DNA from: an uncultured Afifella sp.
GTDB lineage: Bacteria > Pseudomonadota > Alphaproteobacteria > Rhizobiales > Afifellaceae
DNA: 33,041 nt
Assembly: GCA_945787495.1 (NCBI GenBank)
Contig: CALZIL010000027.1
Span: 1-33,041, forward strand
Reading direction: 5' to 3'
The position numbers were made by a program, and so were the translations under genes. The first letter of the stretch is position 1; each line of letters opens with the position of its first letter. Below are positions 28,698 through 33,041 of this stretch, one piece after another. The notes beneath the pieces are model-generated. The model was given only the letters and a program-made list of their open reading frames with translations, was not told the DNA's origin and made no database searches.

Positions 28698-30173
28698 TTA
28701 TTCGGCCGCTTCGGTGTGCACCTTCTGGGCAGCCGTCTTGGCAATAAGCGCGGCGCGAACGCCGGCGGCATAGTCGGCATGGACCTTTTCAAAATGCCCA
28801 AGCTGCCGCTCGGTGATGAAATCGGGAATGCCGAACATCGCGTCGGCGATGTTTGAATAAAGTCGCGATTTCTGGTCATCGTCGAACAGCTCGAACAAAG
28901 CCCGCGGCTGCGAATAATCGTCGTTGCCGATACGGTGATTGTAGCGGTCGGCATCGCCGGAGACTTTCAGCGGCGGCTCTGCCGCTGAGGGCTGCTCGAC
29001 CGGCCCGTCGAACGAGTTCGGCTCGTAATAGGCATCGGGGATCGGGTTGTTGGCGAAGAACCGCATCTGCCCGTCCTTGTGATAGTGATGCACCGGGCAG
29101 TGCGGCGCATTGACCGGCAGCGCCTCATAATGGGTTCCGAGCCGGTGCCGGTGGGCGTCGGCATAGGAAAAGACGCGGGCCTGCAGCATCTTGTCGGGCG
29201 AATAGCCGATGCCCGGCACGATGTTGGACGGCGAGAACGCGCATTGTTCGATCTCGGCGAAGTAATTGTCGGGATTGCGGTTCAATTCCATGACGCCGAT
29301 GTCGATGCACGGATAGTCGCCATGTGGCCAGACCTTGGTCAGGTCGAACGGATTGTAATCGGTTTTTTCCGCGTCCGCCTCCGGCATGATCTGAACCTGC
29401 ATCTTCCATTTGGGAAAATCGCCGTTCTCGATCGCGCCGAAGAGATCTTCCTGCGTCGATTCGCGGGTTCTGCCGACAACATCGGCGCCCTCCGCATTGG
29501 TCCAGTGGCGATGCCCCTGCATGGTCTTGAAGTGGAACTTGACCCAGAAGCGTTCATTGTCGGCATTGATCAGCGAGAAGGTGTGGCTGCCATAGCCGTT
29601 GATGTGGCGGACATCGGTCGGCAGACCGCGGTCCGACATCAGGATCGTCACCTGATGCAGCGATTCCGGCGAGAGTGACCAAAAATCCCACATCGCCGTC
29701 GGCGAGCGCAGATTGGACTTGGGATGGCGTTTCTGGGTGTGGATGAAGTCGGGGAACTTGTACGGGTCGCGCACGAAGAACACCGGCGTGTTGTTGCCGA
29801 CCAGGTCCCAGTTGCCGTCCTCGGTGTAGAATTTCAAAGCGAAGCCGCGCACGTCGCGTTCGGCATCGGCTGCGCCTGCCTCGCCGGCGACGGTGGAAAA
29901 GCGGGCGATCATTTCCGTCTTGGCGCCGGGCTGCAAAACCTTGGCCCTGGTGTATTTGGAAATGTCGCCGGTGATCGTCAGCGTGCCAAAGGCGCCCCAG
30001 CCCTTGGCATGAACCGGCCGCTCGGGAATGCGCTCGCGGTTCTGGTGGGCGAGTTTTTCAATCAGCTGGTAATCCTGCAACAGCAGCGGGCCGCGCTCGC
30101 CGGCGGTCAGTGAATTCTGGTTGTCCGGCACCGGCGCACCGGCCGATGTCGTTAAAGTCTTGTGGTCTGTCAT
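28698..30173 (-). CDS. katA: Heme catalase (clade 3, small subunit type)
   Basis: A 491-residue monofunctional catalase that turns H2O2 into water and oxygen. Key residues are distal H55 ([12 protein letters not shown]), N128 ([13 protein letters not shown]) and the proximal heme tyrosine near residue 338 in [14 protein letters not shown]. The length fits the small-subunit clade. The ATG at 30173 ([15 protein letters not shown]) has a GAGGAGG ribosome site eight bases upstream; the longer frame from 30257 is leader. It is divergent from ndk, and an inverted repeat like the suf operator lies 70-84 bases upstream of the start. The symbol is used in the general sense. Confidence 0.95.
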
Positions 30174-30242
30174 GATCGTCCTCCTCACTCGGCGTACAGT
30201 GCATTGAACCGCGCCCCGCCGCCCGAATTGATCACGACTACC

Positions 30243-30257
30243 TTGGAATAGTTCCAA
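30243..30257. promoter_or_regulatory. Perfect inverted-repeat operator candidate upstream of the catalase
   Basis: TTGGAA-TAG-TTCCAA, a perfect 6-bp inverted repeat with a three-base centre. On the minus strand it reads TTTGGAACTATTCCAA, almost identical to the suf site TTTGGAATTATTCAAA. It lies between the catalase gene and an upstream TATAAT, where a repressor would act. A Fur-family Irr site is the leading guess. Confidence 0.55.
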
Positions 30258-30298
30258 ACAAGGAGCAATGGGACGAGCGGTCGCACCACACGAATAAT

Positions 30299-30304
30299 AT
30301 TATA
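30299..30304 (-). promoter_or_regulatory. Candidate -10 element of the catalase promoter
   Basis: A perfect TATAAT on the minus strand. No good -35 is visible at the normal distance, so an activator may be needed or the match may be chance. Confidence 0.3.
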
Positions 30305-30426
30305 GACCAAATGGGGCGGCAGCCGTCGTTTTCCAGTACGGATCAGCGGCCTTGCGACAATCAGGCGCGGCGGTTATGAGAGCGGCCAATCCCGCCCCGT
30401 ATTTCATCCAGCAAGGACCAGAACCC

Positions 30427-30849
30427 ATGGCGCTTGAACGCACCTTTTCCATTCTCAAGCCGGACGCGACGGCACGCAATCTGACCGGCGCGGTCAATGC
30501 CATGATTGAGGCCGCGGGCCTGCGGATCGTCGCGCAAAAGCGCATCCTGATGACGCGCGACCAGGCCGAGACCTTTTATGCCGTCCACAAGGAGCGGCCG
30601 TTCTTCGGCGAGCTAGTCGAGTTCATGACCTCTGCCCCGGTGGTGGTGCAGGTGCTGGAGGGCGAGAATGCCATTGCCAGAAACCGCGAAGTGATGGGCG
30701 CGACCAACCCGGCCGACGCCGACGAGGGCACCATCCGCAAGACCCATGCCCTCTCGCTCGGCGAGAACACCGTGCACGGCTCCGACGCGCCGGAGACGGC
30801 GGTGGTGGAAATTGCCCAGTTCTTCTCAGGCAATGAGATTGTGGGGTGA
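30427..30849 (+). CDS. ndk: Nucleoside diphosphate kinase
   Basis: A 140-residue kinase that balances NTP and dNTP pools by moving the gamma-phosphate through a phosphohistidine. The active histidine is H117 in [12 protein letters not shown], and the N-terminal [15 protein letters not shown] is typical. The length is standard. The ATG at 30427 has a weak AAGGA site 10-15 bases upstream. It is divergent from the catalase, sharing a 253-bp upstream region. Confidence 0.97.
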
Positions 30850-31016
30850 GTGGCAGTTCGACGGCTTCTCCGACTGGCCGGCGACGGATTCCTGTTACGC
30901 CAATCGCAAGGGGCTGGAGAGAGGCCGGCTGTGAAGGCAGGCAACCTCTTTCCACTCTAATTCGAATATCTCCCCACAGTCACCTTCCCTGAGATGTTTC
31001 ACTTGGATTAGATTAG

Positions 31017-32024
31017 CTATTTTGGGACACCCCAATTGGCATAAGTAAACTTCCTGTCTTCATCAAAAACAAACAATCCACCTAATTTTCGTCCAAATAA
31101 TTTAGAAATAAAATCTTTTTTTGATGAATAATAATAAATTCTGATATAATATCCATCAGAACTTTCTCCCATCTGGTCGATTACAAAATTCTGCTGATCC
31201 AGATAACGTCTAAGTTGGCCATATTGGCAATCCAGGCCGGCGAGTTTCTCATTTATAAAATCATGGACCGCTGCATGGTGCTCATCGATATAGGCTTCGA
31301 TGTTTTGCATCTCGGGCGAATTCAACACCTCTTCACAAGCCCGGCGATCGAATTCGTAAACCGCCACGCTCCGGTCCAGGAGGATGGCATTGAAGAGTTC
31401 GGTGATGTTCTTCTGGAATATTGGAAGCGTGTCGTGCGTCCAATCTCGGGCGCGTAGCCAGCTGTACGACACTTCGACATTGTCGCCAGCACAAGCTTTA
31501 TAGTTAGTTCTGTCGAACGGAGGATCACGCTGAGGTGCCGTGATATTGCCGTAGACAAATTGGGCATTCTTATGGCTGGTGGAACACCGCCGATGCACTT
31601 TGGGTCCAATTAGAAACCTATAGCTGCCGGCACTGAGATAACTGGGCTTGGTTCTAGCGTACTTTGGCGTCCTTCCTGGCGAAAACTCGGTTCCATACGT
31701 TGGATCAAAGACATGGATAACAAACACATCATCCCATTCGTTAAATAAGCGCCGAGCGCGATCAGGTTTGTTGATAATCTCCCCCAATGGAATCCGCGCC
31801 CGATAGTCGTAGGGAAGAGGTAGAAACTTAAACTCAAACAGGCTCGCCTCGTCGGTGGGCAGAGCCAAGCGTACACCCTTAACGGTAATCACCACGCGGC
31901 CATCGTCCAGCCGCGGCCATTCCTGGGCAAACGCTGGTCGCCAACACAACGAAGCAGCGAAGACAGCGCCAGCAACAAGAGCCCATCTGAAAGCGCTAAA
32001 GGATTTCAAACGCTCGGTTCTCAA
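31017..32024 (-). CDS. Secreted protein of unknown function, AT-rich
   Basis: A 335-residue protein that I do not recognise. It has a clear signal peptide (positive start, hydrophobic core ALVAGAVFAASL, likely cleavage at AFA-QE). The mature part has four cysteines (in RRCST, KACAGD, RACEEV and DCQYG) that could form disulfides in the periplasm. No repeats, membrane segments or known catalytic motif are visible. The start appears to be TTG at 32024 with AGGGG seven bases upstream; an in-frame TAG further up rules out a much earlier start. The base composition, especially 31017-31200, is far richer in A+T than its neighbours, and codon use differs. Both are signs of recent acquisition. Confidence 0.72.
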   Translation of the reverse strand: MRTERLKSFSAFRWALVAGAVFAASLCWRPAFAQEWPRLDDGRVVITVKGVRLALPTDEASLFEFKFLPLPYDYRARIPLGEIINKPDRARRLFNEWDDVFVIHVFDPTYGTEFSPGRTPKYARTKPSYLSAGSYRFLIGPKVHRRCSTSHKNAQFVYGNITAPQRDPPFDRTNYKACAGDNVEVSYSWLRARDWTHDTLPIFQKNITELFNAILLDRSVAVYEFDRRACEEVLNSPEMQNIEAYIDEHHAAVHDFINEKLAGLDCQYGQLRRYLDQQNFVIDQMGESSDGYYIRIYYYSSKKDFISKLFGRKLGGLFVFDEDRKFTYANWGVPK

Positions 32025-32119
32025 ACTCCTGCCCCTGAGTCGTATTTTCTCCGGCTATCCGGCGACTGTGACATAATACGCCAGGTGCAGGGGGCTGGAG
32101 TGAAGTACGCAATATTAAC

Positions 32120-32467
32120 CTAAAGGATCTCCAGCACCGTTTCCTTCGGCCTTGCCAGCCGGGTGCCCTTTTCCGTCACGACAAAGGGCCGGTTGATGAG
32201 GATCGGGTGTTCCAGCATCAGATCGATCAATTGATCGTCCGTCCATTTGGGATCATCAAGGCCGAGTTCGTCATAGGGCGAACCCTTGCGGCGCAGCGCC
32301 TCGCGGACGGTCAAACCGGCATCGGCGATCATCTTGACCAGCGTTTGGCGGTCCGGAGGAGCGCTGAGATACTCAATAACCACCGGTGTGACGCCGCGTT
32401 CGTCGAGCATTTGCAGGACGTTGCGGGACGTCCCGCATTTGGGGTTGTGATAGACGGTGACGGTCAT
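32120..32467 (-). CDS. arsC: ArsC-family (glutaredoxin-coupled) arsenate reductase-like protein
   Basis: A 115-residue thioredoxin-fold protein with the catalytic C11 in the CGTSRN motif and the ArsC segments EYLSAPPDRQTL, ILINRPFVVTEKGTRLARP. Enzymes of this family reduce arsenate to arsenite with glutathione and glutaredoxin. The arginines of the C-terminal RPFVV and RLARP segments are present. No arsR, acr3 or arsB gene is adjacent, so a housekeeping (YfgD/ArsC-like) role is possible. The ATG is at 32467. Confidence 0.92.
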   Translation of the reverse strand: MTVTVYHNPKCGTSRNVLQMLDERGVTPVVIEYLSAPPDRQTLVKMIADAGLTVREALRRKGSPYDELGLDDPKWTDDQLIDLMLEHPILINRPFVVTEKGTRLARPKETVLEIL

Positions 32468-32487
32468 GGCGAATCCTGAAGCTGGGC

Positions 32488-32506
32488 CCTCGGGTCAGGC
32501 CCGAGG
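32488..32506. repeat. REP-like hairpin CCTCGGG-TCAGG-CCCGAGG
   Basis: A perfect 7-bp stem with a TCAGG loop just upstream of the ArsC-like start. It has the look of dispersed palindromes in Rhizobiales intergenic regions. It lies too near the gene start to be a terminator for it. Confidence 0.6.
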
Positions 32507-32584
32507 AAGAGGGTAATTGTTTTTCAGGCATCTTTGAAGCGGCGCGGCAGACAGTGACGCGCAGTGGCCGGATGAGGGGAGAAC

Positions 32585-32609
32585 CCACCTCCCCCTTGTG
32601 GGGAGGTGG
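32585..32609. repeat. REP-like hairpin CCACCTCCCC-CTTGT-GGGGAGGTGG
   Basis: A perfect 10-bp stem. No T-run follows on either strand, so a dispersed palindromic repeat is more likely than a terminator. Confidence 0.65.
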
Positions 32610-32649
32610 AAATGGGGAGAATCCTCCGCCCTCCAACTGCCATCCCGTG

Positions 32650-32663
32650 CGCGCTGCAGCGCG
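32650..32663. repeat. 14-bp perfect palindrome CGCGCTGCAGCGCG
   Basis: A self-complementary run inside the repeat mosaic. It may be a part of a larger REP-like unit that includes the GGGATCC/GGATCCC arms at 32684-32719. Confidence 0.5.
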
Positions 32664-32714
32664 AAGCGGTGCTGTGCAGATACGGGATCCACCCGCTTGC
32701 GATGCCGCCGATGG

Positions 32715-32761
32715 ATCCCGGATCAGCAGCGTAGCATTGCATGCCGCGCAGCATCCGGGAT
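32715..32761. repeat. REP-like inverted repeat ATCCCGGAT ... ATCCGGGAT
   Basis: Nine-base arms (32715-32723 and 32753-32761) around a 29-base loop rich in GC and GCAT steps. This form is common in intergenic repeats of Rhizobiales. Confidence 0.6.
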
Positions 32762-32770
32762 GACCCTCTC

Positions 32771-32860
32771 CACTGTCATCTTCCGACCTGATCGGAGGAT
32801 CGTTATCAACATGGCACACCGGGCAACCCGATGGTCCGATCAAGTCGGACCATGACAGTG
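32771..32860. repeat. 90-bp MITE-like palindromic element with two internal hairpins
   Basis: The element begins CACTGTCAT and ends ATGACAGTG, a perfect 9-bp terminal inverted repeat. Inside are two hairpins of the same design: ATCTTCCGA/TCGGAGGAT (32778-32800, one wobble pair) and ATGGTCCGA/TCGGACCAT (32831-32853), each with a five-base loop. The ordered structure suggests a non-autonomous repeat element or a structured RNA unit. Confidence 0.65.
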
Positions 32861-33041
32861 TATTTTGGTCGCTCGTGAAAAAAATCTCACAAAACTTATC
32901 CCCGCCCTTTCACCCCATGATATTTTCGCCGTGCCCTGTCGATGAGAGGTCCGGTGTGCACACCGAGCCATCGGGGACGGGGCCGGCGTCCTGGGTCGTG
33001 CCGGTAGCGCGGGACAGGAGGCTTTCGACAGCTTCGCCCGT

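What the first reader, a model, noticed from the sequence alone, without database searches (positions are those of the whole stretch)
31017..32024. AT-rich secreted orphan in a GC-rich chromosome
The gene has a signal peptide, four cysteines and no recognisable domain. Its 3' half is strikingly AT-rich, it uses a TTG start, and it is next to a dense cluster of palindromic repeats. These signs point to recent transfer. A secreted or periplasmic effector, immunity or binding protein is possible.
Basis: partly seen in the sequence, partly recalled or inferred. Interest (0 to 1): 0.5.

Follow-up and report, generated by a model that had tools for sequence, protein, structure and literature searches.

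The report
AT-rich secreted candidate immunity protein
A lone bacterial gene makes an exported two-part protein whose AT-rich end matches small exported proteins encoded just before broken genes for a large toxin-like protein in two other bacteria, so it may be a stray protective (immunity) gene, although no function has been shown.

Summary
The ORF is real: 335 codons, minus strand 31017-32024, TTG start, export signal by eye, no Pfam, NCBIfam or PADLOC family. Its composition is foreign: third-position GC 0.50 against 0.73 for genome ORFs, and 0.36 over the last 110 codons, lower than all 1278 comparison windows. No match in the 10 other held genomes of its family, and none has it or arsC within 1.5 kb of ndk.

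It is not a complete orphan. Residues 226-335 form a domain also found as a stand-alone secreted protein in two MAGs of the same order (profile built without the window: E 6.8e-8). There the domain is equally AT-rich, so the AT bias is a family trait, not only a mark of recent arrival. In both MAGs a gene starting MG(H/K)LY(I/V)EW follows after 24-28 nt; one reads into RTX-like repeats, the other is a frameshifted remnant. A related N-terminal domain heads long RTX proteins elsewhere.

Best reading: a periplasmic immunity-type guard, fused to a second domain and kept without its weapon (confidence 0.4). No RTX partner was found in the window's genome. Toxicity and binding are inferred by analogy with Smlt3024/Smlt3025 and FrpC/FrpD.

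The parts
31017..32024 (-). the gene: 335 aa, TTG start, exported two-domain protein
31923..32024 (-). signal peptide, residues 1-34 (by eye, cleavage about AFA|Q)
31350..31922 (-). N-terminal region, residues 35-225, two cysteines (C147, C178); no convincing relative found
31020..31349 (-). C-terminal AT-rich domain, residues 226-335, cysteines C230 and C266 conserved in all three members; found as a stand-alone secreted protein in two MAGs
30430..30849 (+). ndk (nucleoside diphosphate kinase; name recalled), convergent downstream neighbour
32120..32467 (-). arsC-like arsenate reductase (name recalled), same-strand upstream neighbour
32585..32860 (.). short palindromes and one 32-nt inverted repeat, beyond arsC

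Best explanation
The gene encodes a periplasmic (or secreted) immunity-type protein acquired from outside the lineage. Its C-terminal domain belongs to a small family of exported proteins with a conserved cysteine pair, encoded in both known relatives just upstream of a gene for an RTX-type protein with a distinctive N-terminal domain. The proposed mechanism is that the C-terminal domain binds the N-terminal domain of such an RTX protein when it reaches the periplasm or surface and blocks it, as Smlt3025 counteracts Smlt3024 and as FrpD binds FrpC. In the window's genome no such RTX gene was found, so the protein would act as an orphan guard against neighbours' weapons; the extra N-terminal region would be a second guard module or an anchor. 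It is said to work like these immunity proteins; it is not filed as a member of the FrpD or Smlt3025 family. Shown here: the homology, export signal (by eye), AT bias, sporadic distribution, and the adjacent RTX-type gene or remnant in both relatives. Inferred: toxicity of the RTX domain, binding, protection, disulfides, and the role of the N-terminal region.
For: A profile built only from the two MAG proteins finds the window's C-terminal domain and nothing else in its genome (E 6.8e-8); 32.0 bits against 12.0 for the best of 5000 shuffles. In both MAGs the next gene starts 24-28 nt downstream with MG(H/K)LY(I/V)EW. Against the motif taken from L006, only 2 of 30,179 start codons in 20 loci and the window reach the score of the L005 start: the L006 source itself and the L005 gene. 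In L006 that gene reads into GGQGNDSLIGND, and its product matches the N-terminal part of longer proteins in 4 other order genomes (E 2.4e-7 to 3.6e-4), three of which, scanned, carry HemolysinCabind and cadherin-like domains. Export signal and conserved cysteine pair. Sporadic distribution. AT-rich domain in GC-rich hosts. Literature: Smlt3024, a growth-slowing effector, resembles N-termini of RTX proteins; its inhibitor Smlt3025 is encoded upstream (PMC6759196; passages read). FrpD binds the FrpC N-terminal domain with Kd about 0.2 nM (PMC5233953; abstract and opening text read). Fused polyimmunity proteins are described (PMC3482391; passages read).
Against: No RTX partner was found beside the window gene or in its genome (thresholds E 1e-3 and 1e-4; the MAG is 95% complete, so a miss is possible). 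Both known partners are broken; the L005 remnant is only a start motif plus a stretch in another frame, and by tblastn alone it is not significant (E 4.9). Of four other loci with the RTX N-terminal domain, only one (L020) has a small gene (at least 110 codons) directly upstream, and that gene is not found by the family profile. A fifth such locus, L041, was not examined upstream. The predicted fold (helices then four strands) does not look like the FrpD/Smlt3025 fold as described in the paper. Whether the RTX N-terminal domain here is the Smlt3024 family was not tested. Only two relatives are known. No binding, toxicity or protection is known.
Confidence: 0.4

Rival explanations
1. The C-terminal domain is an accessory subunit, not an immunity factor: it helps secrete, retain or anchor an RTX adhesin at the cell surface (the adhesion role proposed for FrpD/FrpC). 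In the window it was fused to another region and reused for surface binding.
For: Three long RTX proteins with this N-terminal domain carry cadherin and Ig-like repeats, as adhesins often do. FrpD/FrpC was proposed to act in contact with the host cell surface (abstract).
Against: The sporadic, AT-rich, partnerless pattern seems more typical of immunity genes (inference). An anchor without its adhesin would have no use in the window's genome, where none was found.
Confidence: 0.22
2. An acquired secreted protein with no link to RTX systems: the C-terminal domain is a generic ligand-binding module, and its position beside RTX-type remnants in two MAGs is incidental.
For: Only two relatives are known; three of four other loci with the RTX N-terminal domain lack a small upstream gene. 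The predicted fold resembles common helix-plus-sheet domains only at noise level (OsmE Z 5.1, rmsd 4.2, 74 aligned).
Against: Both relatives show the same gene order with gaps of 24 and 28 nt, although the two MAGs fall in different families by the tool's labels (f29 and f14); their record titles both say Tepidamorphaceae.
Confidence: 0.25
3. A decaying or non-expressed relic: an inserted gene without function in this host.
For: TTG start with a Shine-Dalgarno-like AGGAG only 1 nt before it and no ATG; foreign codon usage; no partner found.
Against: 335 codons are open; the signal peptide, both conserved cysteines and the domain core are intact.
Confidence: 0.13

Closest known systems
Smlt3025, immunity protein of the T4SS effector Smlt3024 (Stenotrophomonas maltophilia; PMC6759196)
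   Same: Encoded upstream of a protein resembling RTX N-terminal domains, as the stand-alone relatives here are; similar length (numbering runs to 333 in the paper, against 335).
   Different: The window gene has no effector beside it. Smlt3025 has an eight-stranded FrpD-like sheet; the window's C-terminal domain is predicted as helices plus four strands. No PDB chain matched by sequence better than E 0.1.
FrpD, lipoprotein partner of the RTX protein FrpC (Neisseria; PMC5233953)
   Same: Exported protein from the same operon as an RTX protein (frpDC), binding its N-terminal domain; the relatives here have a comparable gene pair.
   Different: No lipobox in the window protein; no FrpD-like fold found; no partner found.
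Polyimmunity and orphan immunity proteins of polymorphic toxin systems (PMC3482391)
   Same: Sporadic, possibly fused, partnerless guard-like gene.
   Different: No Pfam, NCBIfam or PADLOC match; protection is untested.
OsmE/BamE-like periplasmic domains and the T6SS immunity protein BtiO (fold level only)
   Same: Helices packed on an antiparallel sheet; OsmE Z 5.1 (rmsd 4.2, 74 aligned), BtiO Z 5.0 (rmsd 4.9, 89 aligned), BamE (5ekq chain E) Z 3.9 (rmsd 4.3, 71 aligned).
   Different: Below the level the tool calls common by chance (about Z 8), and Foldseek gave no match at E 0.001 or better.

Membership tests
FrpD / Smlt3025-type immunity or binding partner | gene lies directly upstream of an RTX or effector gene whose N-terminal domain it binds | tested here: not met
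   No such gene or remnant seen downstream in the window; none found in the genome. The gene order, not the binding, is seen in 2 of 2 relatives.
FrpD / Smlt3025-type immunity or binding partner | FrpD-like fold | tested here: inconclusive
   C-domain model pLDDT 82, helices then four strands; N-terminal region modelled too poorly; no clear structural match.
FrpD / Smlt3025-type immunity or binding partner | lipoprotein signal (FrpD) | tested here: not met
   The only cysteine in the signal region, C27, is preceded by leucine, not G/A/S (sequence; lipobox rule recalled).
FrpD / Smlt3025-type immunity or binding partner | tight binding to the partner or protection from it | not testable with these tools
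   Needs an experiment.
Known Pfam, NCBIfam or PADLOC families | score above curated cut-off (Pfam, NCBIfam) or E 1 or better (PADLOC) | tested here: not met
Stand-alone C-domain family (this report) | profile similarity over the domain, conserved CE..LNSP, second Cys, and C-terminal FD..F....W | tested here: met
BamE/OsmE-like fold | clear structural match | tested here: inconclusive
   Z 3.9-5.1, within the range the tool calls common
Polyimmunity protein | two or more immunity domains in one polypeptide | tested here: inconclusive
   Two regions are present; neither is a proven immunity domain.

The most novel reading that the evidence does not exclude
The C-terminal domain founds a new, unnamed immunity family against a type-I-secreted RTX N-terminal toxin domain. 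It moves between Hyphomicrobiales lineages as an AT-rich module, and in the window it has been captured and fused into a two-domain guard that outlived the weapon. Together with Smlt3024/Smlt3025 and FrpC/FrpD this would mean that many large RTX 'adhesins' are antibacterial weapons with varied, unrelated guards.
Probability: 0.25. Interest if true: 0.6.

Novelty: new variant of a known kind. Interest (0 to 1): 0.36.

Why it matters
If right, it links a domain with no Pfam or NCBIfam model to RTX proteins whose role is unknown. It also offers a simple test of the published suggestion that FrpC-like RTX proteins are antibacterial: does the small upstream protein protect against the RTX N-terminal domain?

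Tried and rejected
Wider occurrence: tblastn in plasmids and phages with the window protein and with the L003 protein, no match; tblastn in plasmids with the L006 partner, none; blastn of the ndk-arsC interval in plasmids, none; viral contigs with the protein and with profile A2, none; genome contigs with the protein, none, and with A2 only the same two MAG contigs. No metagenome scan was allowed.

N-terminal region: two weak hits in 289 class genomes (E 0.001 and 0.006) have stops inside and look like chance. No PDB match better than E 0.35.

L004 hit (G262, E 1.9e-4, residues 110-196): antisense to another long reading frame; judged chance.

PDB sequence matches to BCL10 (E 0.1 or worse) and Pfam zf-C2H2_12 (E 0.17): chance level.

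P0002, the small gene upstream of the RTX protein in L020: tempting as a distant homologue, but profile A4 at E up to 10 finds only another contig of that genome (E 0.139), and P0002 is not among the hits I could see (that list was cut). Kept only as a positional parallel.

Fold search: best Z 7.2 to AcrID1 (6exp, rmsd 3.1, 90 aligned), then small archaeal virus proteins; below the level of about 8 that the tool calls common, not used (full-length model, best 6.9). FrpD and Smlt3025 chains were not among the 50 rows shown, which shows nothing either way.

Rfam (30000-33041) and tRNA (whole window) scans: nothing. Promoter-like and terminator-like sites: about shuffle level.

RTX N-terminal domain: plasmids none; NCBIfam none, PDB only E 0.31 or worse.

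Full report
What is there. The window is contig 27 of a genome in 432 contigs, 3.87 Mb, 95% complete. The ORF 31017-32024 (minus) has 335 codons, a TTG start and a hydrophobic export signal. It lies between ndk (30430-30849, +) and an arsC-like gene (32120-32467, -); these gene names are recalled from the sequences. It has five cysteines, one in the signal peptide. Pfam, NCBIfam, PADLOC and PDB sequence searches give nothing significant.

Composition. In 15 stretches of the same genome (292,862 bases, 62.1% GC) plus the window, 238 ORFs of at least 150 codons (longest kept, overlaps under 60 nt) have mean GC3 0.728, sd 0.067. These are mechanical ORFs, so a few may be spurious, and the gene itself is among them. 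The gene has GC3 0.499; 3 of 238 are lower. The bias is not even: residues 35-225 have GC3 0.581 and residues 226-335 have 0.355. Of 1278 windows of 110 codons none is as low. The last 65 codons reach 0.231.

Distribution. The whole protein is single-copy in its genome. Among 61 relatives 2 match (itself and G038), none of them among the 10 other genomes of its family (one search shows that 11 family genomes are held). Among 397 sampled genomes of the order 4 match at E 0.001: itself, G038 and G070 over the C-terminal domain, and G262 over another stretch that is antisense to a long reading frame and judged chance. A profile of the C-terminal domain (A2) finds 3 of 397, the same three without G262. 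In the families of G038 and G070 only these two match (1 of 2 and 1 of 8). The genome tool gives the two different family labels.

Locus. ndk is present in 11 of 11 family genomes, but in the 10 others neither the gene nor arsC lies within 1.5 kb of it. arsC matches in 8 of 11, and the 7 loci other than the window show no ndk or orphan within 1.5 kb. So this gene order is seen only in this genome among those held, and no clean empty site was found.

Two parts. In L002 (G038) and L003 (G070) the C-terminal domain follows what reads as a signal peptide, as an ORF of 197-198 aa (start codons uncertain). A profile built from those two alone finds the window's copy at E 6.8e-8 and nothing else in its genome; 32.0 bits against at most 12.0 for 5000 shuffles. 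Two cysteines and the motifs CE..LNSP and FD..F....W are kept in all three. The stand-alone copies have GC3 0.389 and 0.393 over the domain and 0.262 and 0.338 over the last 65 codons, where local ORFs average 0.73 and 0.68. The AT bias therefore travels with the domain and does not by itself date the transfer.

The partner. In both MAGs the next gene on the same strand begins 24 nt (L005) and 28 nt (L006) after the stop. Both start MG(H/K)LY(I/V)EW. With the L006 motif as query, 2 of 30,179 start codons in 20 loci plus the window reach the score of the L005 start: L006 itself and the L005 gene. In L006 the gene runs 239 codons into an RTX-like GGQGNDSLIGND and stops; by eye the sequence after it resembles an IS3-type insertion sequence (recalled, not tested), and a tRNA-Ser lies about 0.5 kb from the stand-alone gene. 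In L005 only the start survives, with a later stretch readable in another frame; beyond the start the two DNAs are poorly alike and tblastn gives the remnant only E 4.9. The L006 protein matches, besides itself, 4 of 297 order genomes at E 2.4e-7 to 3.6e-4. Three of these are reading frames of 1385, 1518 and at least 1764 codons (the last runs off its contig) with RTX (HemolysinCabind) and cadherin-like domains; the fourth is a 552-codon frame with RTX-like repeats by eye (L018; not scanned). Of the four, one (L020) has a small gene (at least 110 codons listed) 21 nt upstream; the family profile does not find it. The other three have none. A profile of this N-terminal domain finds 1 of 289 class genomes at E 1e-4 (G630, not examined upstream) and nothing in the window's genome. 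No remnant follows the window gene.

Structure. The full-length model is poor (pLDDT 51), but its C-terminal part is better. Predicted alone, that domain reaches pLDDT 82, pTM 0.75, with helices followed by four strands. Structural matches are all at a level the tool calls common: best Z 7.2; OsmE 5.1, BtiO (a T6SS immunity protein) 5.0, BamE 3.9 (rmsd and lengths under Closest known systems); no Foldseek match at E 0.001 or better. The fold is not assigned.

How it probably works. In S. maltophilia the effector Smlt3024 slows growth of E. [quoted passage not shown] the paper says its effectors lie in small operons with an upstream immunity-like gene, and suggests that FrpC and FrpD of Neisseria may likewise be an antibacterial effector and its immunity protein (PMC6759196, passages read). 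FrpD binds the FrpC N-terminal domain with Kd about 0.2 nM, and a role at the host cell surface was proposed (PMC5233953, abstract and opening text). The small exported protein upstream of an RTX-type gene in the two MAGs fits this layout. I therefore favour a periplasmic guard that binds the RTX N-terminal domain. In the window the guard is fused to a second region and no weapon was found; fused polyimmunity proteins are described (PMC3482391, passages) and orphan immunity genes are a known theme (search listing only). Toxicity, binding and protection are not shown, and I did not test whether the RTX N-terminal domain here is the Smlt3024 family.

Verdict. As a function the immunity reading is plausible at 0.4. 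Literature searches for FrpC/FrpD with RTX, Smlt3024/Smlt3025, RTX with type I secretion and immunity, and FrpC/FrpD with immunity (lists of 8 of 10, 1 of 1, 12 of 38 and 2 of 2 papers) showed no title or abstract start that describes this domain; the papers were not read in full.

Noticed in passing
L006 7827-8546 (-); L017 2416-6573 (-); L018 4413-6071 (-); L019 6214-10770 (+); L020 1-5294 (-): A conserved N-terminal domain of about 180 residues (invariant His, N-S-x-S) heads long RTX/cadherin proteins; no Pfam domain was reported over it in the four proteins scanned, no NCBIfam match in five, and no PDB match better than E 0.31.
   Followed up: partly
L020 5316-5738 (-): A small ORF, cut by the contig end, lies 21 nt upstream of an RTX protein of at least 1764 aa; a possible unrelated guard or partner.
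   Followed up: partly
L006 7421-9755: The stand-alone gene and its truncated RTX-type partner lie about 0.5 kb from tRNA-Ser, with what looks like an insertion-sequence remnant behind the partner (the latter by eye).
   Followed up: partly
window 32585-32860: Cluster of palindromes near the contig end, including a 32-nt inverted repeat; the eight seeds tried occur 0 or 1 times each in 293 kb of the same genome.
   Followed up: partly
window 28698-30849: A catalase close to the window's (77-82% identity) lies near ndk in 3 of 10 other family genomes (G005, G009, G010), and a weaker match (36%) in G002; the other side of ndk varies.
   Followed up: no
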